DNA of 22,967 nt from a virus. The stretch's first letter is position 1; each line of letters opens with the position of its first letter. This document shows, piece after piece, positions 1 through 19,636 of this stretch. Below the pieces are notes generated by a model that was not told the DNA's origin, ran no database searches, and was given only the letters and a program-made list of their open reading frames with translations. A program made the position numbers and the translations under genes. The stretch is taken from positions 1-22,967 of the IMG/VR virus record IMGVR_UViG_3300044568_004338. One strand, given 5' to 3'.

Positions 1-1
1 C

Positions 2-1372
2 AACGATCCAAAAGTGGGTGCTACTAACACTAACGCTCCACACGTAATTAAAGATAAAGTATTGACAGGTTGTTCAGGTGCTGAGTTCGGCGTACGTTGC
101 TTTATCGCAGCTTACAACTTAAAAGACGGTTCTTTAGCATGGAAAGCCTACTCAACAGGTCCTGATGCTGAAATGTTAATCGGCGAAGGCTTCAACAAAG
201 ATACACCTGAGTACAGCGCACTATCAGTTTACCAAGACGTAAACGGTGGTAACAAATTAGGTGGTTCTTTCAACACTATCCCTAATGACAAATTAGTAAT
301 TGGTCAAAAAGAGTTAGGCACACGTACATGGTTGAAACCACAAGCAGTTAAAGATGGTTGGCAACATGGTGGTGGCTCTGTATGGGGCTGGTGGCCGTAT
401 GATGCTCGTACAAACTTGGTTTACTACGGAACAGGTAACCCATCAGTTTGGAACCCAGATGTACGTCCAGGCGACAACAAATGGTCTATGACTGTTTTCG
501 CTCGTGACTTAGACACTGGCGTTGCAAAATGGGGTATGCAAATGACTCCACACGATGAGTGGGATTACGATGGTATTAACGAAGTAATCTTGTTCGACAA
601 AGGTGGTAAAACATACGCATGGCACCATGACCGTAACGGTTTTGCTTACACTTGGAATGCTGGTAACGGTAAATTAGTTGCTGCAGAAAAAGTACACCCA
701 TTCGTTAACTGGGCAACTGGTGTTGATTTGAAAACAGGCGTGCCTAACAAATTGGCTACTGCTTCAACTCACCAAGATTACAATGCAAAAGGCGTTTGTC
801 CAGCTGCTTTGGGTACTAAAGACCAACAACCAGCTGCGTACTCACCAAAAACTGGTTTAATTTACACTCCATTGAACCACGTATGTATGACATACGAGCC
901 AGTTGAGTCTAAATACGTTGCAGGTCAACCATGGGTTGGTGCTACATTGACCATGTTCCCAGGTCCAGACGGTGTAATGGGTGGTTTCGGTGCTTACGAT
1001 CCAATGACAAACAAAAAAGTTTGGTACAACAAAGAGAAATTCTCTGCTTGGGGTGGTGCTTTAACAACTGCTTCAAACTTAGTATTCTTCGGTACTTTAG
1101 ATCGTTGGTTTAAAGCTGTAGATGCATCATCAGGTAAAGAACTATGGAAATTCCAAGTTGGTTCTGGCGTGATTGGTAATGCATTCACATACGGCCACAA
1201 AGGCAAACAATACGTTGGTGTATTATCAGGTATTGGTGGCTGGGCTGGTGTAGCTATGAACCTTGGTATGACTAACCCAACAGATGCACTTGGTGCAGCT
1301 GGTGGTTATGCTGAATTGACAAAATACAACGCTGCTCCTGGTGGCGGTGCATTAAGCGTGTTCAGTCTTTAA
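2..1372 (+). CDS. xoxF: Lanthanide-dependent methanol dehydrogenase XoxF, C-terminal part (5' end outside window)
   Basis: PQQ-dependent periplasmic alcohol dehydrogenase that oxidises methanol and passes electrons to a c-type cytochrome. The frame is open from base 2, so the signal peptide and N-terminal blades lie upstream. The remaining roughly 455 residues form most of the eight-bladed propeller. Visible motifs are GAEFGVRC (metal-ligand Glu region), GGGSVWGWWPYD (tryptophan that stacks on PQQ), GTGNPSVWNP (metal-ligand Asn) and HDEWDYDG. In the last, the catalytic Asp is at nt 563-565 and a second Asp follows two residues later at nt 569-571. That extra Asp marks lanthanide-type XoxF; calcium-type MxaF normally has Ala there. 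The gene is visibly less AT-rich than most later genes, which suggests acquisition from a host. It ends at a strong hairpin terminator, with pqqA next downstream. No internal stop is seen. A bacterial location cannot be formally excluded from this end of the window alone. Confidence 0.95.
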   Translation, partial: NDPKVGATNTNAPHVIKDKVLTGCSGAEFGVRCFIAAYNLKDGSLAWKAYSTGPDAEMLIGEGFNKDTPEYSALSVYQDVNGGNKLGGSFNTIPNDKLVIGQKELGTRTWLKPQAVKDGWQHGGGSVWGWWPYDARTNLVYYGTGNPSVWNPDVRPGDNKWSMTVFARDLDTGVAKWGMQMTPHDEWDYDGINEVILFDKGGKTYAWHHDRNGFAYTWNAGNGKLVAAEKVHPFVNWATGVDLKTGVPNKLATASTHQDYNAKGVCPAALGTKDQQPAAYSPKTGLIYTPLNHVCMTYEPVESKYVAGQPWVGATLTMFPGPDGVMGGFGAYDPMTNKKVWYNKEKFSAWGGALTTASNLVFFGTLDRWFKAVDASSGKELWKFQVGSGVIGNAFTYGHKGKQYVGVLSGIGGWAGVAMNLGMTNPTDALGAAGGYAELTKYNAAPGGGALSVFSL

Positions 1373-1385
1373 TCTGTAGTTGAAT

Positions 1386-1412
1386 AAAAAGCCCACTTCG
1401 GTGGGCTTTTTT
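1386..1412. terminator. Intrinsic terminator after xoxF
   Basis: The stem AAGCCCAC/GTGGGCTT is closed by a TTCG tetraloop, preceded by a run of A and followed by six T, so it could work in both directions. It separates xoxF from pqqA, so pqqA probably has its own promoter or depends on read-through. Confidence 0.93.
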
Positions 1413-1570
1413 ACGAGTATACACTTGCCACAATTCAATGAGTAATTGCAAGAAAATTACTAGTCTTTAATGATTTTACGTATGTTAAATGGTGGTTTTC
1501 GGTGCTATTATAGTTATAAGTACTAGTAACAACACAACGTTGTTTTAGACTTTTAACTAGGAGAATTATT
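1413..1570 (+). promoter_or_regulatory. pqqA upstream region
   Basis: This AT-rich 158-base leader lies between the xoxF terminator and pqqA. It has a possible -10 TATTAT at 1506-1511 but only a poor -35 (TGTTAA at 1483-1488). A perfect palindrome ACAACGTTGT lies downstream near 1533-1542 and could be an operator or a small hairpin. The ribosome binding site AGGAG is about eight bases before the pqqA ATG. The promoter is weakly supported; the ribosome binding site is clear. Confidence 0.4.
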
Positions 1571-1642
1571 ATGTGGACTACACCAGCAGCAACAGAAATG
1601 CGTTTCGGTTTTGAAATTACAGCTTATATCATGAATCGTTAA
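1571..1642 (+). CDS. pqqA: PqqA, precursor peptide of the cofactor PQQ
   Basis: This 23-residue ribosomally made peptide is the substrate of the PQQ pathway. PqqD presents it to the radical SAM enzyme PqqE, which crosslinks a Glu and a Tyr; proteases, PqqB and PqqC complete the cofactor. The sequence begins MWTTPAATEM and contains GFEITAY, giving the obligatory Glu15-x3-Tyr19 pair, and ends MNR as in many methylotroph PqqA peptides. It has a good AGGAG ribosome binding site and its own terminator. No pqqB, C, D or E gene is in the window, so it would feed a host or distant pathway. Its position next to xoxF, the enzyme that needs PQQ, supports the assignment. The peptide is short but recognisable over its full length. 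Confidence 0.93.
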   Translation: MWTTPAATEMRFGFEITAYIMNR

Positions 1643-1660: not shown

Positions 1661-1686
1661 AAAAGCTCTTTTATAGAGCTTTTTTA
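1661..1686. terminator. Terminator after pqqA, shared with the converging HNH gene
   Basis: The stem AAAAGCTCT (1661-1669) pairs with AGAGCTTTT (1675-1683) around a five-base loop and is followed by T-rich sequence. The A-run on the other side makes it usable for the minus-strand HNH gene, whose stop codon lies in the loop. Confidence 0.88.
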
Positions 1687-2153
1687 TTGGCTCTAGTTTC
1701 TGCTAATGTCTTTCTTATTTTTTCTCGTGTTTCTTCAGATACAGCATGCCCTTTACGACTAGCAGACCAATTAGCAATATGTTCTTCTGATTTCACTTTG
1801 CCTTTATGCGATTCTGAACGTTTCTTATTAGCAGCTTCTAGTGTACCATCTGCGCGATGTCTTTCGACTCGTTTACGAGCTGCCTCTTTATACCTAGCCC
1901 GTTGTTCATCGGTGCGTTTCTTACCTTTATTAGCCATACCTTGTTTCATCCTTAATATTTCTTCTTGCCCAATACGTCCGGACAATGCTTGCCACGCACA
2001 ATAGTCTTGCCAATTGCCGTGTTGCTCGTATAATAAGCGATGCGCTTCTGCGTGAGCTTCTACAGTAAGTTCTATTAGGTTACTAGGATCGTCAGTGCCG
2101 CCTAGGTATTGAGGTAAGATGTGATGTATATGTTTCATACAGTTATTTATCAT
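1671..2153 (-). CDS. Free-standing HNH homing endonuclease with NUMOD3 repeats
   Basis: Probable self-propagating DNA endonuclease of the phage HNH type. The N-terminus has HHILPQYLGG, then DDPSNLIELT and EAHAEAH, the layout of a compact HNH nuclease fold. The C-terminal half is basic and carries repeated NUMOD3-like DNA-binding motifs around GKVKSEEH and GHAVSEETREKIRKTL. The ATG at 2153 was chosen because the longer frame begins with TTG; the ATG at 2138, immediately before the HHI motif, is also possible, and neither has a strong ribosome binding site. The gene converges on pqqA and shares its terminator. Such genes often sit beside the site they cleave in rival phages, so the pqqA-ahpC interval may be its target or insertion point (inference). 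Confidence 0.88.
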   Translation of the reverse strand: MINNCMKHIHHILPQYLGGTDDPSNLIELTVEAHAEAHRLLYEQHGNWQDYCAWQALSGRIGQEEILRMKQGMANKGKKRTDEQRARYKEAARKRVERHRADGTLEAANKKRSESHKGKVKSEEHIANWSASRKGHAVSEETREKIRKTLAETRANKKAL

Positions 2154-2177
2154 TGTTACTTCATAACCTATAAACAA

Positions 2178-2291: not shown

Positions 2292-2858
2292 ATGAGTTTA
2301 ATCGGAAAACAAGTAGAAGCATTTAAAGCACAAGCATACCAACAGGGTAAGTTTGTAGAAGTAACAGAGCAAGATTTAACAGGTCGTTGGAGCATAGTAT
2401 TCTTTTACCCAGCAGACTTTACATTTGTCTGCCCGACAGAGTTAGCAGATTTACAAGAAGTCTACACAAGTGATTTCAAAGCCTTGGGAGTTGAAGTATA
2501 CAGCGTAAGCACAGACACACACTTTGTACACAAAGCATGGGCAGATGCTACAGACACAATCCGTAACATCACCTACACAATGATTGGCGATGCTAACCAT
2601 CAGTTAGCAAAACAATTTGGTGTATTAATTGAAAGCGAAGGCTTAGCTGACCGCGGCACATTTGTTATCGACCCAGATGGTGTAGTACAGATCATTGAGA
2701 TCAATCCAGGTGGCGTTGGTCGTGATGCTCGAGAACTATTGCGTAAAGTAAAAGCGGCAAAATACACACGTGAACATCCAGGTGAAGTATGTCCAGCTAA
2801 ATGGCAAGAAGGAAGTGCTACACTAGCACCTAGCTTGGATCTAGTTGGTAAGCTATAA
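2292..2858 (+). CDS. ahpC: Typical 2-Cys peroxiredoxin, alkyl hydroperoxide reductase subunit C
   Basis: Cytoplasmic peroxidase that reduces hydrogen peroxide and organic peroxides. The 188 residues match the full family length. The peroxidatic cysteine is Cys47 in DFTFVCPTE, and the resolving cysteine is Cys167 in GEVCPAKW near the C-terminus. The start has an AAGGAG ribosome binding site. No ahpF reductase gene lies nearby, so recycling would depend on host AhpF or thioredoxin. The stop codon overlaps the start of a 21-codon ORF (TAATG), which suggests coupled translation. In a phage this would be auxiliary metabolic cargo, perhaps countering peroxide stress during infection of an aerobic methylotroph (inference). 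Confidence 0.95.
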
Positions 2859-3007: not shown

Positions 3008-4357
3008 TTGAATAAATTAAACCCAAAAATTGTAATAGCAACTGTTCCGTTCGTTGACGAAGACACTCCTCTAGCTGCTCCAGCGGTGCTCAAATCAAGT
3101 TTAGTAAAACACGGATTTGAATGTGTTGCGATCGATTTGAATATTGAAATATTTAATAAAATACAGCATCATCCCAATAGACAATTATTTTTAAAGTTCT
3201 TTTATTTTCAAGAAATTAACCAAGAGATTGTAGATGAATTAACTAGGATGATTGACTTCTATGTACACACAATACTTGCGCACAAGCCTGATATCATTGG
3301 GCTTTCATTATTTTCATTTAATTGCCAGACATTTACTGCTTGGTTGTGCGCAAGTCTTAAGCATCATTCACCCCAAAGCAAAATTGTCATCGGCGGACCT
3401 GGATTACAAACATTAGAGAATTCTTTTTTTAAATATCCTGATCGGTTAAAACAGCTTGGTCTAATCGATGATTATATTGTTGGAGACGGGGATACATCCT
3501 TTGTAGAATATGCTAAAGGTAATTTAACATATCCTGGTATAAATTCAACAATATGGAAATCTGTAGAGTCTTTTGATTCCTTACCAACTCCGGACTATTC
3601 GGATTATACTTTTTTTCATTACAAATACCCCCTACTTCCAATAATTGATAGTCGTGGGTGTGTGCAAAATTGTGAGTTTTGTGATGTTATTTCCTTTTGG
3701 AATAAATTTCAATATCGTTCCGCAGACACAATATATAATCAAATTTTAGATTATATTAGAATCTATAAGATATATAGATTTCAATTTAGTAGTAGTATTT
3801 CCAATGGAAATCTTAGAGAGTTTAAAAAATTAGTAACAATGATTTCTGACTATAATAAAAAAAATGTTGACAATGCTAACGAGCAGATACATTGGATTGG
3901 CTCATTTATTATCAGACCAACTATTCACCATAAAGAAAAACTTTATCAGCTAATTAAAGAATCCAATGGGTTTTTAATATGCGGAGTAGAAAGCATAATT
4001 TCTGATGTTAGAAAAAAACTTGGCAAAAATTTTGATAATGATGATCTTGAATACCATCTGAGTATGTGCAAAAAATATCAGATCGAAATGAATTTTTTGT
4101 TAATTGCTGCATATCCTACAGAAACCGTTGAAGATTATACAGCAGCTAAACAATGGTTTATAGATCGTAAACACCTTGCCAATGACCCAATCAAACAGGT
4201 ACAGGTAACTGTGCCCATTATTTTGCCTGGCACGGAATTAGAAAAAACTATGGATGCGCAAATCTTTTCAGAAAAAGAATATGCTAGGAAAGAACATGCT
4301 TACGAACTTATAAAGGTAATTAAAGAATGCGGATTCAACGTACGATCTTTTGTTTAG
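3008..4357 (+). CDS. B12-binding-domain radical SAM protein
   Basis: Iron-sulfur radical SAM enzyme of unknown substrate. Residues 7-170 look like a Rossmann-type B12-binding domain (IVIATVPFVDEDTPLAAP near the start, DIIGLSLFSF at 95-104, KIVIGGPG at 125-132, YIVGDGDTSF at 156-165), but the DxHxxG cobalamin-ligand motif is not seen. The radical SAM domain follows, with the cluster motif CVQNCEFC (Cys218, Cys222, Cys225). The 449-residue length suits the family. The start appears to be TTG at 3008 with no clear ribosome binding site and no nearby in-frame ATG; an unusual start or weak expression is possible. Its end overlaps the next gene by 31 bases, so the two may act together. The gene is clearly more AT-rich than xoxF. 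Confidence 0.88.
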   Translation: MNKLNPKIVIATVPFVDEDTPLAAPAVLKSSLVKHGFECVAIDLNIEIFNKIQHHPNRQLFLKFFYFQEINQEIVDELTRMIDFYVHTILAHKPDIIGLSLFSFNCQTFTAWLCASLKHHSPQSKIVIGGPGLQTLENSFFKYPDRLKQLGLIDDYIVGDGDTSFVEYAKGNLTYPGINSTIWKSVESFDSLPTPDYSDYTFFHYKYPLLPIIDSRGCVQNCEFCDVISFWNKFQYRSADTIYNQILDYIRIYKIYRFQFSSSISNGNLREFKKLVTMISDYNKKNVDNANEQIHWIGSFIIRPTIHHKEKLYQLIKESNGFLICGVESIISDVRKKLGKNFDNDDLEYHLSMCKKYQIEMNFLLIAAYPTETVEDYTAAKQWFIDRKHLANDPIKQVQVTVPIILPGTELEKTMDAQIFSEKEYARKEHAYELIKVIKECGFNVRSFV

Positions 4358-5433: not shown

Positions 5434-5512
5434 CTCAGTGTCGTATAGTCAGGCCTATTATGCGTGCTTTGGGAGCATGAGATCGTTGGTTCGAATCCAA
5501 CCACTGAGACCA
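5434..5512 (+). tRNA. tRNA-Pro(TGG)
   Basis: The acceptor stem CTCAGTG/CACTGAG is perfect. The anticodon arm is CGTGC-TTTGGGA-GCATG, and the T-arm has the loop TTCGAAT. CCA is encoded. It is the first of 25 tRNA genes and is embedded between two structured stretches. Confidence 0.95.
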
Positions 5513-5745
5513 ATTTAACTTGAACACAGGCAAGTATAGTCCTGTGGACTGAGGTGTGGCAGGAGGGGAGATAAGCCCTACGAGAACGAGGATAGCGTAC
5601 TGGCGTAGTATCCAAGGAAGCCCCCAATCTAGAGCGCAGTAGGGAAACATAACTATCCCGACAGGCAGTGCTTGCCTGAGCTAAGGTTATAACCGCTGAT
5701 TTATACTTAATTGCAGGCGGATAAAATGCTAAAGGAGGATTAATC
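5513..5745 (+). ncRNA. Structured non-coding stretch, part 2, downstream of tRNA-Pro
   Basis: Dense helices and no long ORF. They include CACAGG/CCTGTG near 5524-5545, CCCTAC/GTAGGG near 5577-5644 enclosing GGATA/TATCC, CAGGCA-GTGCT-TGCCTG near 5662-5678, the palindrome GGTTATAACC near 5685-5694, and CCGCTG/CAGGCGG near 5693-5720. The last helix carries the 12-base loop segment TTTATACTTAAT (5700-5711). The same 12 bases recur in the apical loop of another hairpin at 7935-7946. The end merges into the ribosome binding site of the next micro-ORF. Confidence 0.4.
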
Positions 5746-5808
5746 ATGAACGAACATGATGTTGAACAAGGGGGCTTTGGCTTTCCTGTTTACAGTAGAT
5801 TAAAATAA
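5746..5808 (+). CDS. 20-residue micro-ORF ending at the first base of tRNA-Tyr
   Basis: The ATG has a near-perfect ribosome binding site, AAAGGAGG, ending about seven bases upstream. The peptide begins MNEHDVEQGGFGFPVYSRLK. Its TAA stop ends exactly one base before the acceptor stem of tRNA-Tyr. The strong ribosome binding site makes translation plausible. Function is unknown; translation might affect processing of the tRNA precursor, or the ORF may be a remnant. Confidence 0.4.
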   Translation: MNEHDVEQGGFGFPVYSRLK

Positions 5809-5892
5809 GGAGTGGAAGCATCAACGGTGATGCAGTGGACTGTAAATCCGCCGCCCATGGCACGCCTGGTTCGATCCCAGGACACTCCACCA
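5809..5892 (+). tRNA. tRNA-Tyr(GTA)
   Basis: A type II tRNA with an extra variable arm. The anticodon arm is GTGGA-CTGTAAA-TCCGC and the T-arm CCTGG-TTCGATC-CCAGG. CCA is encoded. The seventh acceptor pair is a G-A mismatch. Confidence 0.93.
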
Positions 5893-5915
5893 TTTTAAAC
5901 CAAGGAGATCCAATC

Positions 5916-5966
5916 ATGGATAGTGACAAATGTGGTAAGACACGGGAGTGTGGTGTCAACGGTTAA
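5916..5966 (+). CDS. 16-residue micro-ORF running into tRNA-Lys
   Basis: The ribosome binding site AAGGAG is eight bases before the ATG. The context (AAGGAG...AATCATG) resembles that of the micro-ORF at 5746. The peptide MDSDKCGKTRECGVNG overlaps the 5' part of tRNA-Lys, so translating ribosomes would compete with tRNA folding. The two similar leaders suggest a shared origin, but coding function is uncertain. Confidence 0.3.
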   Translation: MDSDKCGKTRECGVNG

Positions 5967-6021
5967 GCACAACGGACTTTTAATCCGCTAAGTAAGGGTT
6001 CGAATCCCTTCACTCCCACCA
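5944..6021 (+). tRNA. tRNA-Lys(TTT)
   Basis: The acceptor stem GGGAGTG/CACTCCC is perfect. The anticodon loop is CTTTTAA, the T-loop TTCGAAT, and CCA is encoded. A 16-codon ORF overlaps its 5' portion. Confidence 0.95.
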
Positions 6022-6226
6022 TACAAAAATACATTCGCCCGCGAGGGTACACTTAGGTAAGTTAAGTCCGGCAATGCGGTTCGAGTCCGTTGAGTGTGTT
6101 TCTGTATGGTATGTAATGGCATATGAAAAGAATAATTACCTTTTCAGCGATGCGACCTTAAAGCTCCTGGTAGAACTTGAGCGTGGGCCAGGAAGGTACT
6201 CAACATTACATACTATAACAATTTTT
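6022..6226 (+). ncRNA. Two adjacent structured elements between tRNA-Lys and tRNA-Asp
   Basis: First element: CCATACA (6019-6025) can pair with TGTATGG (6103-6109), enclosing CCC-GCGA-GGG and a hairpin ACACTTA (6049-6055)/TGAGTGT (6091-6097). That hairpin contains a tRNA T-arm-like segment (GCGG-TTCGAGT-CCGT) but has no anticodon arm, so it may be a reduced tRNA or mimic. Second element: a perfect 10-bp stem GTATGTAATG/CATTACATAC (about 6109-6118 and 6204-6213) encloses two hairpins, GAAAAG/CTTTTC and TCCTGG/CCAGGA, giving a three-way junction. No coding signal is seen, and no known family is recognised. Confidence 0.4.
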
Positions 6227-6304
6227 GGTCTGTTAGAATAGTTGGCCTACTTCGCCTGCCTGTCACGTAGGAGATCACGGGTTCGAATCCCGTACAGACC
6301 GCCA
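6227..6304 (+). tRNA. tRNA-Asp(GTC)
   Basis: Acceptor stem GGTCTGT/ACAGACC with discriminator G, anticodon arm CCTGC-CTGTCAC-GTAGG, T-loop TTCGAAT and encoded CCA. Confidence 0.95.
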
Positions 6305-6312
6305 AAAATATG

Positions 6313-6341
6313 TTGACGACTAGTAAGAATGAATATATACT
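6313..6341 (+). promoter_or_regulatory. Sigma70-like promoter before tRNA-fMet
   Basis: TTGACG (6313-6318), a 17-base spacer, and TATACT (6336-6341). Each hexamer has one mismatch from consensus. The expected start is about 20 bases before the initiator tRNA, so it could drive a second tRNA transcript. Confidence 0.7.
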
Positions 6342-6366
6342 AGTTGTATTAGTTAGAAAGATCAAT

Positions 6367-6441
6367 CGCGGGGTGGGGAAGTGGAAACCCGTCGGGCTCA
6401 TAACCCGAAGATCGGCAGTTCGAATCTGTCCTCCGCAACCA
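6367..6441 (+). tRNA. Initiator tRNA-fMet(CAT)
   Basis: The first base C faces A at position 72, the mispair that marks bacterial initiator tRNAs. The anticodon stem has the run of three G-C pairs (GGG-CTCATAA-CCC). The sequence around CGTCGGGCTCATAACCCGAAG is that of a formylmethionine tRNA. CCA is encoded. The D-loop is slightly shorter than in typical bacterial copies. Confidence 0.94.
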
Positions 6442-6450
6442 AAGTTTTAA

Positions 6451-6526
6451 GCCGGTTTAGCTCAGCAGGTAGAGCAGCGCACTTGTAATGCGAAGGTCAA
6501 CAGTTCGATTCCGTTAACCGGCACCA
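6451..6526 (+). tRNA. tRNA-Thr(TGT)
   Basis: Acceptor stem GCCGGTT/AACCGGC, anticodon arm GCGCA-CTTGTAA-TGCGA, canonical D-arm TAGCTCAGCAGGTAGAGC, and encoded CCA. Confidence 0.96.
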
Positions 6527-6532
6527 GTTTAG

Positions 6533-6608
6533 GCTCCCATCGTCTAGAGGCCTAGGACACCCGCCTTTCACGCAGGTAACACGAGTTCGAATCTCGTTGG
6601 GAGTACCA
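6533..6608 (+). tRNA. tRNA-Glu(TTC)
   Basis: Acceptor stem GCTCCCA/TGGGAGT (first pair G-T), anticodon loop CTTTCAC, and T-arm ACGAG-TTCGAAT-CTCGT. There is one C-A mismatch in the anticodon stem. CCA is encoded. Confidence 0.94.
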
Positions 6609-6613
6609 AACAT

Positions 6614-6698
6614 GCCTCTGTGGCGGAATTGGTAGACGCACTGGATTTAGGTTCCAGCGCCGTAAGGCGTGAGAGTTCGAGTCTCTCCGGGGGCACCA
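6614..6698 (+). tRNA. tRNA-Leu(TAG)
   Basis: A class II tRNA with a long variable arm (GCGCCGTAAGGCGT). The acceptor stem is GCCTCTG/CGGGGGC, the anticodon arm CTGGA-TTTAGGT-TCCAG, and CCA is encoded. It is the only leucine tRNA in the island. Confidence 0.95.
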
Positions 6699-6701
6699 AA
6701 T

Positions 6702-6775
6702 GCGGGATTGGTGTAATGGCAGCACAAGAGTTTTCCAAACTTTTAGCGAGGGTTCGATCCCCTTATCCCGCTCCA
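6702..6775 (+). tRNA. tRNA-Gly(TCC)
   Basis: Acceptor stem GCGGGAT/ATCCCGC with discriminator T, anticodon loop TTTCCAA, T-loop TTCGATC, and encoded CCA. Confidence 0.94.
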
Positions 6776-6982
6776 AACACTAGGGTTACACTTTGTCTTT
6801 ATGAAAGTGGGTAGATTGCCAACACCATAACGGCACAGTGCATACGTTCTACTGCAAGGCTCACTATATGAGCGACTTGAGAAATACGTAGGGGTTTTAT
6901 TGTTTCGTACCAGATGGAAACAGTCGGACAGGGTAACTACTCAGTTTGGGGCCAGGTAGTGCTGGTAGCCAAACACCTATAC
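6776..6982 (+). ncRNA. Structured non-coding stretch between tRNA-Gly and tRNA-Ala
   Basis: Helices visible in 207 bases: CACTTT (6789-6794)/AAAGTG (6804-6809), GCTCA-CTATA-TGAGC near 6861-6875, TGTTTC (6901-6906)/GAAACA (6917-6922), and a two-part hairpin GTTTGG (6944-6949)/CCAAAC (6969-6974) enclosing CCAG/CTGG. No ribosome binding site and start pair supports a gene. It could be an independent small RNA, part of a larger scaffold or a spacer. Confidence 0.35.
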
Positions 6983-7058
6983 GGGGGTGTAGCTCAGTTG
7001 GGAGAGCGTCTGCTTTGCAAGCAGAATGTCGCAAGTTCGATCCTTGTCACCTCCACCA
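6983..7058 (+). tRNA. tRNA-Ala(TGC)
   Basis: The acceptor stem GGGGGTG/CACCTCC contains the G3-T70 pair that specifies alanine charging. The anticodon arm is TCTGC-TTTGCAA-GCAGA. CCA is encoded. Confidence 0.96.
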
Positions 7059-7064
7059 TATTAC

Positions 7065-7140
7065 ACGCGGTTAGCTCATTTGGTAGAGCACTTGCCTTAC
7101 AAGCAAGGGGTGGTTGGTTCAATCCCAACACTGCGTACCA
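7065..7140 (+). tRNA. tRNA-Val(TAC)
   Basis: Acceptor stem ACGCGGT/ACTGCGT, anticodon arm CTTGC-CTTACAA-GCAAG, T-loop TTCAATC, and encoded CCA. Confidence 0.95.
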
Positions 7141-7147
7141 GTTTTAT

Positions 7148-7223
7148 TCCGGTCAAGCAAACACGGTGTAGGCGGTGGACTGTTAATCCATGAAGGTTGG
7201 TTCGATTCCAACGACCGGAGCCA
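7148..7223 (+). tRNA. tRNA-Asn(GTT)
   Basis: Acceptor stem TCCGGTC/GACCGGA with discriminator G, anticodon arm GTGGA-CTGTTAA-TCCAT, T-arm GTTGG-TTCGATT-CCAAC, and encoded CCA. Confidence 0.95.
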
Positions 7224-7231
7224 TTTTAAAT

Positions 7232-7307
7232 GCTTCTTTAGCTCAATCGGGAGAGCAATGTGTTGATAACGCATAGGTACTTGGATCGAAACCAAGAAGA
7301 AGCACCA
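7232..7307 (+). tRNA. tRNA-Ile(GAT)
   Basis: Acceptor stem GCTTCTT/AAGAAGC, anticodon loop TTGATAA, and encoded CCA. The T-loop reads ATCGAAA, so position 54 is A instead of the nearly invariant T. Confidence 0.93.
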
Positions 7308-7341
7308 GTTAAGTTGTTCTTTTCAATCAAAGGTGAATACT

Positions 7342-7812
7342 ATGAAAAAACTAGACATCAATCAAGTGCGTGATTTTATTCAAGCACAAAGTCTAGAAAC
7401 AAAGATCTACATTGGTGGTGATAGCCGCAGATTTCGTCAAAACGGCCAATGGCATGCTGAATACACATTAGCCATTGTAGTACACATTGATGGGAACCAT
7501 GGTTGTAAGATCTTTGGTGAAAGCTCAACAGAAGTAGACTATGATCAAAAACGTAGCCGCCCGAGTATGCGTTTGATGAACGAAGTGTACAAAATTAGTG
7601 AACTATACTTAAAACTACACGAAGTCCTAGAAGATCGTGAAGTTGCGGTACACTTAGACATTAACCCAAACGAAATGTACGGTAGCTCATGTGTAGTACA
7701 ACAAGCTATTGGTTATATCCGTGGTACTTGTAACGTTATTCCAATGGTTAAACCAAACGCATGGGCTGCAAGTTATGCCGCAGATCGTTTAAAAGAAGTT
7801 ATAGCAGCATAG
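7342..7812 (+). CDS. RNase H-like protein of the DUF458/YkuK family
   Basis: A 156-residue protein resembling the YkuK-type RNase H-like fold. Visible blocks are YIGGDSRR with Asp27 at the first strand, a beta-hairpin run (WHAEYTLAIVVHID), HLDINPN with Asp106, and a C-terminal helix with Asp148 (YAADRLKEV). The acidic residues could bind metal as in RNase H nucleases, but the family's activity is not established here. The ATG at 7342 was chosen over the GTG at 7333 because AAAGG lies eight bases upstream of the ATG. The gene is wedged between tRNA-Ile and tRNA-Gln, six bases before the latter, suggesting co-transcription and perhaps a role in RNA handling (inference). Confidence 0.82.
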   Translation: MKKLDINQVRDFIQAQSLETKIYIGGDSRRFRQNGQWHAEYTLAIVVHIDGNHGCKIFGESSTEVDYDQKRSRPSMRLMNEVYKISELYLKLHEVLEDREVAVHLDINPNEMYGSSCVVQQAIGYIRGTCNVIPMVKPNAWAASYAADRLKEVIAA

Positions 7813-7818
7813 TTTTAT

Positions 7819-7893
7819 TGGGGTATGGTGTAATTGGCAACACAACACACTTTGACTGTGTCGTTTCAAGTTCGAGTCTTGATACCCCTGCCA
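7819..7893 (+). tRNA. tRNA-Gln(TTG)
   Basis: The acceptor TGGGGTA/TACCCCT has a T-T mismatch at the first pair; glutamine tRNAs normally have a weak T-A there. The anticodon arm is ACACA-CTTTGAC-TGTGT and CCA is encoded. Confidence 0.93.
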
Positions 7894-8145
7894 GTTTTGT
7901 TAGTGTGTGTACAGTAACCGATATGTGACTACAGTTTATACTTAATCCAACTGTAGTGTACCCGATGTCTGTAGCAATGTATCTTAGGATATGTCAGCAA
8001 GTGAATTAAGTGTAACTTGGTGGCTAACAAATTCAAACACAACCGAGAACGCCTCTTAACAATGCGCAACATCAAACGTGGATTTACACGTGACGCTATA
8101 GGACGCTATAGTCTACGGTCTTCCGGGAGGATAACTCCCAACTAT
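7894..8145 (+). ncRNA. Candidate pseudoknotted RNA between tRNA-Gln and tRNA-Trp
   Basis: A perfect 8-bp stem TTTGTTAG (7896-7903)/CTAACAAA (8024-8031) closes the element. Inside it, CTACAGTT (7929-7936)/AACTGTAG (7949-7956) forms a perfect hairpin. The loop segment ACTTAAT (7940-7946) is exactly complementary to ATTAAGT (8005-8011), still within the outer stem, which gives a loop-to-strand pseudoknot. TATC-TTAG-GATA forms another small hairpin near 7979. After the closing stem are a tandem 10-base repeat (GACGCTATAG twice, near 8092-8111) and a GGGAG/CTCCC hairpin. No gene is apparent. Confidence 0.5.
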
Positions 8146-8221
8146 TCCGGTGTAGTGTTAACGGCTAGCACGATGGTCTCCAAAACCACAAGACGCGGTT
8201 CGAATCCGTGCACCGGAGCCA
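8146..8221 (+). tRNA. tRNA-Trp(CCA)
   Basis: Acceptor stem TCCGGTG/CACCGGA with discriminator G. The anticodon loop is CTCCAAA and the T-loop TTCGAAT. CCA is encoded. The outermost anticodon-stem pair is an A-C mismatch. Confidence 0.93.
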
Positions 8222-8231
8222 AACAATCAAA

Positions 8232-8308
8232 GCACAAGTACCAGAGTGGCCTAATGGCGGGGACTGCAAATCCCTTGTTCGTCGGTTCAAATCCGACCTT
8301 GTGCTCCA
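8232..8308 (+). tRNA. tRNA-Cys(GCA)
   Basis: Acceptor stem GCACAAG/CTTGTGC with discriminator T, anticodon arm GGGGA-CTGCAAA-TCCCT, T-arm GTCGG-TTCAAAT-CCGAC, and encoded CCA. Confidence 0.94.
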
Positions 8309-8320
8309 AATGTTACTTAT

Positions 8321-8359
8321 CGCTAACATTTATAACATTTTGTCAGTCAAATGTTAGCG
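8321..8359. repeat. Perfect 11-bp inverted repeat between two tRNA genes
   Basis: CGCTAACATTT (8321-8331) and AAATGTTAGCG (8349-8359) are exact complements around a 17-base loop. No T-run follows, so it is not an ordinary terminator. In the transcript it would form a stable hairpin and could be a processing site between tRNA-Cys and the next tRNA. Confidence 0.75.
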
Positions 8360-8374
8360 AGAGTTAACACTAAC

Positions 8375-8449
8375 GGTAATGTAGCATAATGGAAGTGCAC
8401 CACCTTCATACGGTGTTCAGTGTTAGTTCGACTCTAACCATTACCACCA
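8375..8449 (+). tRNA. tRNA with CAT anticodon, probably elongator Met
   Basis: Acceptor stem GGTAATG/CATTACC, anticodon loop TTCATAC, T-arm GTTAG-TTCGACT-CTAAC, and encoded CCA. The sequence lacks initiator features. The other non-initiator CAT tRNA (10753-10827) resembles lysidine-type Ile, so this one is most likely elongator Met; Ile cannot be excluded. Confidence 0.9.
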
Positions 8450-8453
8450 ATAT

Positions 8454-8530
8454 CGGCCCGTAATTCAACTGGATAGAAAGCAAGTCTTCGAAACTTGAGG
8501 TTGGGAGTTCGAATCTCTCCGGGCCGGCCA
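8454..8530 (+). tRNA. tRNA-Arg(TCG)
   Basis: Acceptor stem CGGCCCG/CGGGCCG with discriminator G, anticodon arm CAAGT-CTTCGAA-ACTTG, T-loop TTCGAAT, and encoded CCA. Confidence 0.95.
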
Positions 8531-8536
8531 ATCAAT

Positions 8537-8611
8537 GCGGATATAGCGTAGTAGGAAACGCACGTGCTTGCCAAGCATGAGTCACGAGTTCGAATCTCGT
8601 TATCCGCTCCA
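8537..8611 (+). tRNA. tRNA-Gly(GCC)
   Basis: Acceptor stem GCGGATA/TATCCGC with discriminator T, anticodon arm CGTGC-TTGCCAA-GCATG, T-loop TTCGAAT, and encoded CCA. It is the second glycine tRNA of the island. Confidence 0.95.
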
Positions 8612-8613
8612 AT

Positions 8614-8690
8614 GGTGACCATAGTGTAAAGGTTTAGCACCCGACTCTGTGAAAGTCGTAGAATGGGATCGTTACCCATTGGTTACCCCA
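8614..8690 (+). tRNA. tRNA-His(GTG)
   Basis: The extra 5' G at -1 faces a C discriminator, the histidine-specific feature. The acceptor stem is GTGACCA/TGGTTAC and the anticodon arm CGACT-CTGTGAA-AGTCG. The T-loop is ATCGTTA, with A54 and T58 in place of T54 and A58. CCA is encoded. Confidence 0.94.
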
Positions 8691-8719
8691 TTGACATTTT
8701 GGTAAAAAGAATGTATAAT
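8691..8719 (+). promoter_or_regulatory. Consensus sigma70 promoter for the 8746-10067 operon
   Basis: TTGACA (8691-8696), a 17-base spacer, and TATAAT (8714-8719), both perfect. The -35 begins at the base after the CCA of tRNA-His. The leader to the first gene is about 20 bases. Confidence 0.92.
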
Positions 8720-8745
8720 ACTAATAATTAGAAAAGAGATATATC

Positions 8746-9042
8746 ATGAAGTGCGTTGAATGCAAATTTTGTGTGTTAGAAGATTATGGATATTCAAACT
8801 ATACAGTTGAGGGCACTAATGCTGACTGTTACTTAAACTTAAACCCAAAGTTTCCCGTTGATAACTGGTACGGTGAGGCAGAAGCACATAACTTTGCTAA
8901 AGAATGTTCACGATACTCAAAAGGTGAACCAGTTTCGCTTGATGTAGATCACGAAGAAGGACACTTTCTAAACTATGTGGATGATCCAGAACTACGTGAG
9001 ATGGTTGAAAAGGAATTAGTGTGGGAAACTTTAAGCACATAA
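8746..9042 (+). CDS. Unknown Cys-rich small protein
   Basis: A 98-residue acidic protein that opens with a tight cysteine cluster (MKCVECKFC: Cys3, Cys6, Cys9), followed by further cysteines near residue 28 and in KECSRYSKG. This suggests a small zinc-binding or metal site. No catalytic motif is recognised. It is the first gene of a four-gene operon with a consensus promoter. The ribosome binding site is the weak AGAGAT. Its stop overlaps the next ATG (TAATG), indicating coupled translation. Confidence 0.75.
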   Translation: MKCVECKFCVLEDYGYSNYTVEGTNADCYLNLNPKFPVDNWYGEAEAHNFAKECSRYSKGEPVSLDVDHEEGHFLNYVDDPELREMVEKELVWETLST

Positions 9043-9284
9043 TGACTGAAGAAGAACAATTAGCTTGGGATATACTTAGTACGCCTAACAATGCGGACTT
9101 TAAAGAGTATCGTAGGACGCATCGGATGACGTGGTTAACTAAAACACGCAAAGTTCTCTTAATCAAAGATATGGATACAGCGCATATTATAAGTTGTGTT
9201 AATATGTTGGAGAGATTAGAACAACAATATACATTAGCCTATGGTGGCCTAATAGATGAATTAAGAAAGCGAGGACAAGAATGA
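9042..9284 (+). CDS. Unknown small helical protein
   Basis: An 80-residue protein, charged and mostly helical in appearance (MTEEEQLAWDILSTPNN at the start). The ATG at 9042 was chosen because it overlaps the preceding TAA; a GTG 21 bases upstream is the alternative. It ends in an ATGA overlap with the next gene. No family is recognised. The tight coupling on both sides supports a real gene. Confidence 0.7.
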   Translation: MTEEEQLAWDILSTPNNADFKEYRRTHRMTWLTKTRKVLLIKDMDTAHIISCVNMLERLEQQYTLAYGGLIDELRKRGQE

Positions 9285-9667
9285 TGGACTTTACCATAGA
9301 CCCGGAATACCTAACCAGTGTAACTATACATGAAGAATGGAACACTTACACTAAAAACGGTCGTGAGCCAACAGTTGAAGAATTAATATTAATCTTACAA
9401 GGTAAGGGTAAATGTGGTACTACGAGTTCAGAAGACCACCCAGAGTTCGCTAAGTTGCGTGAGCAGTTAGGCGAGCTTGGATACATTAGGATTGAACGAG
9501 GTTGGTGGAATGGTGATAGAGTACTAAAGCCGTTTAGACTTAACGGACGTAAGTTTAAAGAGGGTGATCAGTTTAGCTGTGGAGCCGCAATGGGCAATCA
9601 TCTTAGGGTGCGTGCCAAATACCCAGAATATTATAAGGATGAATACGATGATGAAACCGTGGATTGA
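9281..9667 (+). CDS. Unknown protein, third gene of operon
   Basis: A 128-residue soluble protein. The start ATG overlaps the preceding TGA (ATGA), and a second ATG follows at 9284. A motif-like central part has paired aromatic residues (RGWWNGDRV) and the end is acidic (YYKDEYDDETVD). There is no membrane segment or signal peptide, and the family is not recognised. It overlaps the start of the phosphatase-like gene by 20 bases, so the two are probably co-translated. Confidence 0.7.
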   Translation: MMDFTIDPEYLTSVTIHEEWNTYTKNGREPTVEELILILQGKGKCGTTSSEDHPEFAKLREQLGELGYIRIERGWWNGDRVLKPFRLNGRKFKEGDQFSCGAAMGNHLRVRAKYPEYYKDEYDDETVD

Positions 9668-10067
9668 AAATATCAGTCTTGATGATGTACGTAAAGGATA
9701 TCATTACGACCCGGGTTTCAACAGTATGTTAATCCAGATCGTAGATCCCGGTACAGAATTCCCAACACCCAAATATGACTTCCGCACAGTGCGTCAGTTT
9801 TACTTTTTAGATGTAGAAGAAAGCGACAGCGAAAAGTTTTATTATGCAGCGGCAATTACCAACGCCGATGCTAAGGGGATTGCTGAAGCATTAAAAGAAG
9901 CATGGAAAGAACATATGAACGTAGTGGTACACTGTCATATGGGTGTAGCACGTAGCGGGGCAGTAGCCGAAGTTGGCCATATGATTGGGTTTAGGGACAC
10001 TGAAAAATTTCGTGTGCCGAACCTAATGGTAAAGCATAAGTTAATGCACTACTTGGATTTAGTTTAG
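9648..10067 (+). CDS. Protein tyrosine / dual-specificity phosphatase-like protein
   Basis: A 139-residue protein with the cysteine-phosphatase loop HCHMGVARS, in which His95, Cys96 and Arg102 match HC(x)5R, followed by Ser103. This loop binds phosphate and the Cys attacks the phosphoester. An upstream Asp in YFLDVEESD (Asp55) could be the general acid. The length suits a minimal dual-specificity or phage phosphatase. The ATG at 9648 was chosen because AAGGA lies eight bases upstream; longer starts would overlap the previous gene extensively. The substrate could be protein, nucleotide or RNA 5' phosphate. Its place between tRNA-His and tRNA-Phe makes an RNA-related role worth considering (inference). 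Confidence 0.82.
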   Translation: MMKPWIENISLDDVRKGYHYDPGFNSMLIQIVDPGTEFPTPKYDFRTVRQFYFLDVEESDSEKFYYAAAITNADAKGIAEALKEAWKEHMNVVVHCHMGVARSGAVAEVGHMIGFRDTEKFRVPNLMVKHKLMHYLDLV

Positions 10068-10070
10068 AAT

Positions 10071-10146
10071 GCTACCTTAGCTCATCTGGTAGAGCACCGG
10101 TCTGAAGAGCCGGGTGTACTTGGTTCAAGTCCAAGAGGTAGCACCA
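10071..10146 (+). tRNA. tRNA-Phe(GAA)
   Basis: Acceptor stem GCTACCT/AGGTAGC, anticodon arm CCGGT-CTGAAGA-GCCGG, T-loop TTCAAGT, and encoded CCA. Base 37 is G, where bacterial tRNA-Phe usually has A. It starts three bases after the stop of the phosphatase-like gene. Confidence 0.93.
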
Positions 10147-10500
10147 AAGAATTCTCTAATACCGGTAGGGTTTGAGGTAAGTAGCAGCCCGAGCGAAACG
10201 ATAGCCGTAAGGACTTTGTTAGCAGAAAACCTTAGGTCGTAGGACCGACAAGCTACTAGACTAGAAAGAGAATCTCAACTGCCAAACAGTTGACGACGAC
10301 TGCGGTTACTAGTCAAATTGGGAGAAAGCTGTAACTGTATATATTCGAGGTTAGGAGAGTACAGCAAACCGCCCAACTTACACAACACCAGACCTCAATC
10401 TCGTTAAGAGACAATTCTGGTTCCGCTGACGCGAAAAGAGGATGGGCTGCGCTCACGGGGTTTGTTAGGTTCCTGACACAAAAATACCTAACACTAACAT
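10147..10500 (+). ncRNA. Largest uninterrupted structured non-coding stretch, between tRNA-Phe and tRNA-Ser
   Basis: No gene is seen in 354 bases, but helices are dense. ATTCTCT (10151-10157)/AGAGAAT (10267-10273) encloses AGTAGC (10180-10185)/GCTACT (10252-10257). Then come CAACTG-CCAAA-CAGTTG (10276-10292) and GCGGTT (10302-10307)/AACCGC (10367-10372) interleaved with TTGG (10318-10321)/CCAA (10373-10376), which forms a pseudoknot around the CTGTA/TACAG hairpin (10335-10364). Next are ACCAGA (10387-10392)/TCTGGT (10416-10421) with inner TCTC/GAGA, and finally TGTTAGGT (10463-10470)/ACCTAACA (10486-10493). RNase P RNA was considered because of an AAACCGCC segment, but the other conserved blocks are absent. 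A large ornate phage RNA is the leading idea. Confidence 0.5.
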
Positions 10501-10588
10501 GGAAGTTACTGAGGTTGGCTCCTCACACAGTCTTGAAAACTGTAGTTACCAGGAATGGTAAATCGTTCGATGCGATTAACTTCCGCCA
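10501..10588 (+). tRNA. tRNA-Ser(TGA)
   Basis: A class II tRNA with acceptor GGAAGTT/AACTTCC and discriminator G. The anticodon arm is ACAGT-CTTGAAA-ACTGT. The long variable arm contains TTACC/GGTAA, and the T-arm is AATCG-TTCGATG-CGATT. CCA is encoded. Confidence 0.94.
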
Positions 10589-10593
10589 AATAC

Positions 10594-10622
10594 TTGACAT
10601 TATTGATAAACGGTGTTATAAT
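10594..10622 (+). promoter_or_regulatory. Consensus sigma70 promoter inside the tRNA island
   Basis: TTGACA (10594-10599), a 17-base spacer, and TATAAT (10617-10622). The following leader is almost the same as that of the promoter at 4898-4926. It should drive the last three tRNAs and possibly the downstream small gene. Confidence 0.92.
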
Positions 10623-10652
10623 AGTTTTATAGTAAGAAATTAATAAAGTTTT

Positions 10653-10742
10653 GGAGAGTTGGCCGAGTGGTCGAAGGCAGCGGCTTGCTAAGCCGTCCTC
10701 CCTGTAAAGGGAGCATAGGTTCGAATCCTATACTCTCCGCCA
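10653..10742 (+). tRNA. tRNA-Ser(GCT)
   Basis: A class II tRNA with acceptor GGAGAGT/ACTCTCC and discriminator G. The anticodon arm is GCGGC-TTGCTAA-GCCGT, the variable arm contains CTCCC/GGGAG, and CCA is encoded. It lies 30 bases downstream of a consensus promoter. Confidence 0.96.
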
Positions 10743-10752
10743 TATTTAAGTA

Positions 10753-10827
10753 GGGCCTTTAGCTCAGAGGAAGAGCGGACGACTCATAATCGTTAGGTCA
10801 GGGTATCGTAATCCCTAAGGCCCACCA
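10753..10827 (+). tRNA. tRNA with CAT anticodon, probably Ile (lysidine type)
   Basis: Acceptor stem GGGCCTT/AAGGCCC. The anticodon region ACGACTCATAATCGT closely resembles bacterial tRNA-Ile2, whose C34 is converted to lysidine by TilS to read ATA. The T-loop is ATCGTAA, again with A54 and T58. CCA is encoded. Confidence 0.88.
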
Positions 10828-10829
10828 AC

Positions 10830-10904
10830 CCGGTGTTAGTTAAATGGATATAACAGGGGATTTCTACTCCCTAGTTGGGGGTTCGATTCCCTCACGCCGG
10901 ACCA
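10830..10904 (+). tRNA. tRNA-Arg(TCT)
   Basis: Acceptor stem CCGGTGT/ACGCCGG, anticodon arm GGGGA-TTTCTAC-TCCCT, T-loop TTCGATT, and encoded CCA. It is the last tRNA of the island. Confidence 0.94.
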
Positions 10905-13195: not shown

Positions 13196-13232
13196 CTGTT
13201 ACAAAATATTTACACCTTAAAGGTTAAATACT

Positions 13233-13255
13233 GATAACGGCGCCCTGTTATTTTT
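13233..13255 (+). terminator. Probable terminator after the cyclase
   Basis: GATAACGG (13233-13240) pairs with CTGTTATT (13245-13252) around a CGCC loop, including G-T pairs, and is followed by T bases. It separates the cyclase from the secreted-protein gene. A palindrome ACCTTAAAGGT lies just upstream. Confidence 0.6.
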
Positions 13256-13280
13256 CCGACGCCTATAGGGAGAATACAGA

Positions 13281-13709
13281 ATGCGTAAAATACTAATGTT
13301 GTTAACAGCATCTTTGATTCAAACTGCGCCGGCTGCTGATTTGCCTAAAGAAATGTACATGCCCAATGATGCTGGTGGTTTTGTTGTGTTAACCACACGA
13401 CCATGTACAGTTGAAAAGATAGCAGAAGAATATCCGTATCGTGCTTATGCAACAGAAAGCTCTGAATTGGTTAATCACGAAGGATGTTGGAATAGCCCGG
13501 ACACTTCTGAAGTGCCTACTCAACTGATGTCGAAGTCAGAAGGAGCAGGTCCAGCACCCACTATACGTGTTATACCTTTGGTTAATACTTGGTGGGTGGA
13601 AGCTGGCAGAATGACATTTATGCAACGAAGTTTTAGTCCGGAAAAGAAACGTTATTCGAGCAACGGCACAATTGAAATGACATTACAGCCAATTGTAGTT
13701 AAACCTTAA
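13281..13709 (+). CDS. Unknown secreted or periplasmic protein
   Basis: A 142-residue protein with a short N-terminal signal peptide (MRKILMLLTASLIQTAPAA, likely cut after Ala). The mature part has two cysteines (RPCTV and EGCWNS) that could form a disulfide, consistent with export. No family is recognised. The start has the ribosome binding site AGGGAG. It is followed after 13 bases by the penicillin-binding-type peptidase, so an envelope role is likely by context. Confidence 0.75.
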   Translation: MRKILMLLTASLIQTAPAADLPKEMYMPNDAGGFVVLTTRPCTVEKIAEEYPYRAYATESSELVNHEGCWNSPDTSEVPTQLMSKSEGAGPAPTIRVIPLVNTWWVEAGRMTFMQRSFSPEKKRYSSNGTIEMTLQPIVVKP

Positions 13710-19146: not shown

Positions 19147-19636
19147 TATAGAGCCTTTTTGGGATGATAGTTTTAAAAATTTAGAGTACACTGTAGAATC
19201 TTTTAACAATCCCAATGACACTGCACAGTGGATGGAACAAGGATATCCTGGTAAGTTCACTGGTGCTATGTGCGATATGCGGAAAGCCCAACCAGTTTGG
19301 AATTCTATGTTTGTTAACTATTTCAATCGTCTTGGTTGGAAAGATGTCTGTACGAGTTATTATCGAATGAGTAGTGGGACCATATTACCTGTTCATCGAG
19401 ATACTTACAAAAGATATATTGAACTGTTTGACCTTAATAGGCAAGAACATACTATACATCGTGCGGTAGTATTCTTAGAATCATGGACCAGTGGCCATTA
19501 TTTAGAATTAGATAATACACCAATTGTCAATTGGTTAGCAGGCGATGTTGTCACCTGGTGCTATGACACTCCGCACCTTGCAGCTAATATGGGATTAACT
19601 CCTAGATACACTTTACAAATAACAGGACACGTATGA
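19133..19636 (+). CDS. 2-oxoglutarate/Fe(II) oxygenase-like protein
   Basis: A 167-residue protein with the layout of an iron(II) and 2-oxoglutarate oxygenase. It has His88-x-Asp90 in LPVHRDTYKRY, a distal His148 in DTPHLAAN, and Arg158 in TPRYTLQITG for the 2-oxoglutarate carboxylate. These resemble phage aspartyl/prolyl-hydroxylase-like enzymes. The GTG at 19133 was chosen because a longer frame starts with TTG deep inside the previous gene. The GTG overlaps that gene by 14 bases and has only a weak GGGA upstream. It ends in an ATGA overlap with the amidinotransferase. It may hydroxylate a small molecule, sugar or protein made by the cluster. Confidence 0.75.
   Translation: MDKFNIEPFWDDSFKNLEYTVESFNNPNDTAQWMEQGYPGKFTGAMCDMRKAQPVWNSMFVNYFNRLGWKDVCTSYYRMSSGTILPVHRDTYKRYIELFDLNRQEHTIHRAVVFLESWTSGHYLELDNTPIVNWLAGDVVTWCYDTPHLAANMGLTPRYTLQITGHV

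What the first reader, a model, noticed from the sequence alone, without database searches (positions are those of the whole stretch)
1571..1642. Orphan pqqA as a minimal cofactor-supply gene
A 23-codon gene with its own ribosome binding site, terminator and probable promoter region is kept intact apart from its pathway. If PqqA limits PQQ synthesis in infected cells, a tiny gene would be the cheapest way to raise cofactor output. Genes this short are easily missed by gene callers, so similar phage pqqA genes may be unannotated.
Basis: partly seen in the sequence, partly recalled or inferred. Interest (0 to 1): 0.82.

Follow-up and report, generated by a model that had tools for sequence, protein, structure and literature searches.

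The report
Phage gene for PQQ precursor peptide
A virus of methanol-eating bacteria carries a tiny stand-alone gene for the 23-residue peptide from which the cofactor PQQ is cut, and hundreds of other viruses, including cultured ones whose published maps overlook it, carry the same kind of gene without the rest of the pathway.

Summary
In detail: 1571-1642 encodes MWTTPAATEMRFGFEITAYIMNR, a PqqA scoring well above the curated cut-offs of PF08042 and TIGR02107, with a Shine-Dalgarno site and a hairpin terminator. It lies 198 bases behind a xoxF-type methanol dehydrogenase gene on a 22,967-base virus record. One published case exists (Lake Baikal VP_266, methanol dehydrogenase plus PqqA, PMC7678222), so the window is a new member of a known kind. 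New is the scale. Orphan pqqA is unannotated, or hidden under an opposite-strand 'hypothetical protein', in all nine Methylophilales isolate-phage records detected (P19250A, Venkman, MEP301, MEP401/402, four Melnitz). It is also in at least 329 IMG/VR contigs. No pqqB, C, D or E was found beside it in 343 loci. The gene is under purifying selection (pN/pS 0.16), and Glu and Tyr are intact in 119 of 119 copies found by a pattern that did not require them. Host genomes carry up to 12 pqqA copies, and nearly all have PqqE. Most likely the phage supplies the consumed substrate of host PqqBCDE. Processing by the host, PqqA limitation and a benefit to the phage are untested.

The parts
2..1372 (+). 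3' part of xoxF-type (lanthanide-type, WDYD motif) PQQ methanol dehydrogenase, cut by the contig start
   Evidence: TIGR03075 438 bits for the fragment; full-length sister copy L002:9506-11371, 621 aa, over the cut-off; tree places it beside Methylotenera
1386..1411 (+). hairpin terminator of xoxF, separating it from pqqA
   Evidence: fold -16.3 kcal/mol, z -4.9, followed by T run
1445..1535 (+). upstream block conserved with sister phage; probable promoter/leader region of pqqA (no promoter shown)
   Evidence: alignment with L002; consensus scans inconclusive
1559..1563 (+). Shine-Dalgarno AGGAG, 7 bases before ATG
   Evidence: sequence; SD core in 328 of 333 phage pqqA loci
1571..1642 (+). 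pqqA, 23 aa PQQ precursor peptide
   Evidence: PF08042 and TIGR02107 above cut-offs
1661..1686 (+). hairpin terminator of pqqA
   Evidence: fold -12.6 kcal/mol, z -4.4
1671..2177 (-). HNH homing endonuclease next to pqqA (neighbour, also present in L002)
   Evidence: phrog_655 71.7 bits; conserved at L002:15105-15608
2292..2858 (+). ahpC-type peroxiredoxin, next gene on the + strand; pqqA-HNH-ahpC order conserved in L002
   Evidence: TIGR03137 312.8 bits, over the cut-off

Best explanation
The gene is a phage auxiliary metabolic gene that supplies PqqA, the one pathway component consumed molecule for molecule when PQQ is made. During infection the phage makes the 23-aa peptide. Host PqqD presents it and host PqqE cross-links its Glu and Tyr; host protease, PqqB and PqqC finish PQQ. 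The cofactor loads host XoxF/MxaF and, in this phage, the phage's own XoxF in the periplasm, keeping methanol oxidation (energy and C1 supply) running for virus production. Only the substrate has to be encoded, because the enzymes are catalytic and already present in the host. Shown here: identity, orphan status, selection on the peptide, intact cross-link residues, hosts that have pqqA and nearly all PqqE, phage peptides identical to host PqqA. Inferred: expression in infection, processing by host enzymes, PqqA being limiting once host transcription falls, benefit to the phage.
For: PqqA family hits. Nine Methylophilales isolate-phage records carry it, with full or 96% coverage, E 1e-6 to 4e-4 (contexts). 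A Klebsiella-type PqqA query finds the same set of records, so the host specificity among named phages is not query bias. 336 pqqA-bearing virus loci, 146 distinct peptides, 64 flank clusters even at loose identity, SD in 328 of 333. No pqqB/C/D/E in 343 loci; PqqE, PqqC and PqqB over cut-off only in the bacterial control record; PqqC in 0 of 50 further records. pN/pS 0.16 overall, pN 0.154 / pS 0.474 in codons not fixed by the search pattern. Glu and Tyr intact in 119 of 119 copies found by a pattern not requiring them. 47 of 114 pqqA copies stand alone between opposite-strand genes and terminator-like sites exceed shuffles 19 to 0, so many are independent cassettes. Phage peptides identical to host PqqA. 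36 of 36 Methylophilaceae genomes have pqqA, 1-12 copies; 35 of 36 have PqqE over the cut-off, the exception a 0.9 Mb partial genome; literature: 3-12 pqqA copies, usually one pqqBCDE set (PMC4109929). pqqA shares a contig with pmoC in a methanotroph-type phage fragment and with xoxF in the window, L002 and L004.
Against: No expression or biochemical data. PQQ is not consumed in catalysis, so demand needs new apoenzyme or PQQ loss; nearly all pqqA phages examined lack a PQQ dehydrogenase. PMC9851590 reports that overexpressing pqqABCDE in Methylovorus gave only a limited rise in PQQ, and that pqqE rose strongly in an overproducing Hyphomicrobium mutant, so PqqE rather than PqqA may limit. The window peptide has an unusual ITAY segment (Ala before the Tyr), though phages with EITAY occur elsewhere.
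Confidence: 0.78

Rival explanations
1. Decoy: phage PqqA ties up host PqqD/PqqE and reduces PQQ synthesis, shutting down host methanol metabolism.
For: Orphan peptide without enzymes is also what a competitor would look like.
Against: Cross-linked Glu and Tyr intact in 119 of 119; many peptides identical to the host substrate, which would feed rather than block the pathway; co-occurrence with phage xoxF (window, L002, L004) and pmoC points to promoting C1 oxidation.
Confidence: 0.05
2. Supply of PQQ for a purpose other than methanol oxidation, for example PQQ as an antioxidant during infection; the pqqA-HNH-ahpC neighbourhood would be an oxidative-stress set.
For: ahpC peroxiredoxin is the next + strand gene and the order is conserved in L002.
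Against: ahpC was not seen beside pqqA in the annotated isolate phages; the named phages with pqqA infect methylotrophs; free PQQ as antioxidant is not established in these hosts (own knowledge).
Confidence: 0.07
3. Neutral passenger: a tiny host gene that rides along by chance recombination and has no effect.
For: Only 72 bases; hosts carry many loose copies, so capture is easy.
Against: pN/pS 0.16 with many synonymous changes; retained with SD in dozens of unrelated contexts and in every Methylophilales isolate phage detected by the search.
Confidence: 0.05
4. Host contamination: the contigs are misassigned bacterial DNA.
For: One record, 'Acinetobacter phage MD-2021a', is such a case, with a full pqqABCDE operon.
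Against: Isolate phages with complete genomes carry it; no pqqBCDE in the other 343 loci; the annotated isolate flanks are phage genes.
Confidence: 0.02

Closest known systems
Lake Baikal Methylophilaceae phage populations VP_266 / VP_139 (PMC7678222)
   Same: T4-like methylotroph phages with methanol dehydrogenase; VP_266 also encodes PqqA; proposed as auxiliary metabolic genes
   Different: One metagenomic case; wider spread, cultured phages, selection, orphan rule and host copy number were not described in the passages read
Host PqqA (PF08042 / TIGR02107), multi-copy in Methylophilaceae (PMC4109929)
   Same: Same peptide family, often identical sequence; host copies also often lie away from pqqBCDE
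   Different: Phage copies are on virus genomes with no pqq enzyme genes found
pmoC of methanotroph phages (PMC7674155)
   Same: Phage-borne single component of a host C1 oxidation pathway; both occur on one contig, L456
   Different: pmoC is an enzyme subunit; pqqA is a consumed precursor peptide. That paper does not mention PQQ
psbA of cyanophages (from own knowledge)
   Different: psbA encodes a protein subunit that turns over, not a peptide substrate; the parallel is inference

Membership tests
PqqA precursor peptide (PF08042/TIGR02107) | HMM score above curated cut-off | tested here: met
   38.8 vs 21.1 bits; 36.9 vs 20 bits
PqqA precursor peptide (PF08042/TIGR02107) | Glu and Tyr spaced E-x3-Y in a 20-30 aa peptide | tested here: met
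   MWTTPAATEMRFGFEITAYIMNR; 119 of 119 relatives in a pattern not requiring them
PqqA precursor peptide (PF08042/TIGR02107) | pqqBCDE in the same genome or operon (usual in bacteria; accompanies the family rather than defining it) | tested here: not met
   Absent from the phages searched; present in hosts. Not required of a phage copy, and many host copies are also unlinked
PqqA precursor peptide (PF08042/TIGR02107) | Cross-linked by PqqE with PqqD and converted to PQQ | not testable with these tools
   needs enzymology
Phage auxiliary metabolic gene | Host-derived metabolic gene on a bona fide virus genome | tested here: met
   IMG/VR record; relatives in complete isolate phages; identical host peptides
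Phage auxiliary metabolic gene | Kept functional by selection in virus lineages | tested here: met
   pN/pS 0.16 across 121 distinct sequences; pN 0.154, pS 0.474 in unconstrained codons
Phage auxiliary metabolic gene | Expressed in infection and alters host metabolism | not testable with these tools
   no transcript or metabolite data on hand

The most novel reading that the evidence does not exclude
Orphan pqqA is a general, overlooked auxiliary gene of phages that infect PQQ-dependent C1 oxidisers (methylotrophs and methanotrophs): viruses raise or sustain PQQ flux by supplying only the consumed precursor peptide, mirroring the hosts' own multiplication of pqqA, and sometimes pair it with xoxF, pmoC or formate dehydrogenase.
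Probability: 0.6. Interest if true: 0.75.

Novelty: new member of a known kind. Interest (0 to 1): 0.62.

Why it matters
A gene too short for usual annotation is present in every Methylophilales isolate phage the search detected, so cultured phage-host pairs (MEP301 with HTCC2181, Venkman and Melnitz with H5P1, P19250A with IMCC19250) can be used at once to test whether viruses control cofactor supply in bacteria that consume methanol in lakes and oceans. It also suggests that phages can steer a pathway by supplying its consumable substrate peptide instead of an enzyme, and that virus gene catalogues (the window PqqA matches no PHROG family) miss a class of metabolic genes.

Tried and rejected
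Two IMG/VR scans for other PqqA types returned nothing because the patterns were one base out of frame; one search showed that the first of them fails on a known pqqA, so both are discarded. The corrected pattern (checked on L013) gave at least 120 loci. The consensus promoter scan and TATAAGTA / TATAAATA searches were at chance. The tool's terminator scan missed both hairpins, probably because the stems swallow the T run; folding was used instead. The radical SAM protein at 3008-4357 was considered as a PqqE and rejected (B12-binding type, no TIGR02109 hit). 'Acinetobacter phage MD-2021a' was rejected as a bacterial contig and kept as positive control. Megablast of L397 and L416 against named phages found nothing. 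xoxF-pqqA linkage inherited from the host was rejected: a pqqA of the searched type lies within the fetched flank (at most 6 kb) of xoxF in 1 of 80 host loci.

Full report
Observation. The ORF 1571-1642 reads MWTTPAATEMRFGFEITAYIMNR and is a PqqA by both curated models. It has AGGAG 7 bases upstream and a hairpin with T run at 1661-1686; xoxF upstream ends with its own strong hairpin, so pqqA probably needs its own promoter, which I could not demonstrate. The record is a 22,967-base IMG/VR virus contig. The ORF at 2-1372 is the rest of a XoxF-type methanol dehydrogenase cut by the contig start; the sister phage L002 has it complete.

Prior art. The Lake Baikal study PMC7678222 reports T4-like Methylophilaceae phage populations VP_139 and VP_266 with methanol dehydrogenase, and VP_266 with PqqA. 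The window is therefore a new member of a described kind, and I do not claim phage pqqA as such.

What is new: spread in cultured phages. tblastn of the peptide against 50,697 phage records finds P19250A, MEP301, Venkman, four Melnitz isolates, MEP401, MEP402 and the uncultured ctXG6705. None is annotated as PqqA; in Melnitz and ctXG6705 an opposite-strand 'hypothetical protein' is annotated over it. The Melnitz, MEP301, Venkman and MEP401/402 papers list other auxiliary genes or none and do not mention phage PQQ genes; the P19250A paper was not held. A Klebsiella-type PqqA query returns the same records, so among named phages pqqA is confined to Methylophilales phages plus ctXG6705, whose PqqA is of the same type, apart from the misassigned Acinetobacter contigs.

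What is new: spread in IMG/VR. A codon-scrambled control found none. A sub-pattern also hit the limit, and a corrected [DE]LRxG[FLMI]E pattern gave another 120 or more. In all, 336 pqqA-bearing virus loci with 146 distinct peptides were examined, SD in 328 of 333, falling into 261, 138 or 64 flank clusters at 95, 80 or 65% identity.

Orphan rule. PqqE, PqqC and PqqB exceed cut-off only in the control among 50 records; PqqC is absent from 50 more (a search with no positive control of its own; the same model rang); local tblastn of pqqB, C, D and E finds nothing in 343 loci except the control. Many contigs are fragments, but complete isolate genomes are included. XoxF was found only in L002, L003 and L004 and in none of the second panel; L003 shows no pqqA on its 17.7 kb fragment. 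So pqqA is usually carried without a PQQ dehydrogenase.

Function retained. pN/pS is 0.16 over 121 distinct sequences. Since the pattern fixes some residues, I repeated it on the unconstrained codons: pN 0.154, pS 0.474. With a pattern that stops before the Glu and Tyr, both are intact in 119 of 119 readable copies, though most loci are shared with the first scan. 47 of 114 copies sit alone between genes of the opposite strand, and terminator-like hairpins occur in 19 of 132 against 0 in shuffles: many copies are autonomous cassettes.

Host side. All 36 Methylophilaceae genomes searched have pqqA, 1 to 12 copies each; 35 have PqqE over cut-off, and the exception is a 0.9 Mb partial genome. PMC4109929 states independently that Methylophilaceae carry 3-12 pqqA but usually one set of the other genes. 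Frequent phage peptides are identical to host PqqA. Host xoxF rarely has pqqA of the searched type in the fetched flank (1 of 80 loci), so the phage arrangement is not inherited host synteny.

Mechanism. PqqA is consumed one peptide per PQQ, whereas PqqB-E are catalysts (established pathway knowledge). Supplying only PqqA is thus the smallest genetic way to raise or sustain PQQ synthesis if PqqA is short. I infer that phage takeover of host transcription makes PqqA the first component to run out. Not shown: expression, processing, limitation, benefit. Against limitation, PMC9851590 notes that pqqABCDE overexpression gave a limited increase and that pqqE rose most in an overproducer.

Related C1 genes. 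The XoxF tree needs at least three gains or losses of the phage label, consistent with separate captures from Methylotenera-like, HTCC2181-like and KB13/LSUCC0401-like hosts (bootstrap not fully settled). L004 carries xoxF, then a formate dehydrogenase alpha subunit (885 bits, cut-off 666), and pqqA about 6 kb further on. L002 carries xoxF, pstS, a phosphate porin, pqqA, ahpC and a small cytochrome c. A T4-like fragment, L456, has pmoC and pqqA about 2 kb apart.

Verdict. Interest comes from how widespread and immediately testable this is, not from the window alone.

Noticed in passing
L004:9494-14288 and about 17389-17460: A 72 kb phage contig has xoxF followed directly by a formate dehydrogenase alpha subunit gene (TIGR01591, 885 bits) and pqqA about 6 kb on, plus csgG-like curli genes: a possible phage C1-oxidation set.
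   Followed up: partly
L002:9506-16619: Sister phage of the window has xoxF, a calcineurin-type phosphoesterase, pstS, a phosphate-selective porin, pqqA, HNH, ahpC and a small periplasmic-type cytochrome c; the window lacks the three genes between xoxF and pqqA.
   Followed up: partly
window 1-1414 versus L002: xoxF is 97.5% identical to L002 while the following regions are 80-84% identical, suggesting recent exchange of xoxF between phages.
   Followed up: no
L456:12254-15210: Methanotroph-type phage fragment with pmoC split into two frames (12254-12661, 12890-13294) and an HNH gene behind it, perhaps an intron, and an orphan pqqA at about 15150.
   Followed up: partly
window 5434-10904: 24 tRNA genes in 5.5 kb, interspersed with small ORFs.
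   Followed up: no
window 11177-13195: CHASE2 plus adenylate/guanylate cyclase protein (phrog_35576, 698 bits), also in L002 and L004: a phage-encoded membrane cyclase.
   Followed up: no
window 3008-4357: B12-binding radical SAM protein of unknown role, not PqqE.
   Followed up: partly
CAKLQF020000010.1 (L013): 'Acinetobacter phage MD-2021a' holds a complete pqqABCDE operon and ppk: a bacterial contig misfiled as phage.
   Followed up: yes
L010:2961-3056 and L007:2067-2195: Annotated 'hypothetical proteins' (Melnitz gp152, UOF77531) lie antisense over pqqA and are probably spurious calls.
   Followed up: partly
L397:11008-11061 and L396: Klebsiella-type PqqA (MWKKPEFVDLRLGLEVTLYISNR) behind lambda-like tail genes on contigs of about 40 kb without PqqC; could be a prophage gene or a host flank.
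   Followed up: partly
window 19633-20547: Weak arginine-deiminase-family hit (PF02274, just under the cut-off).
   Followed up: no
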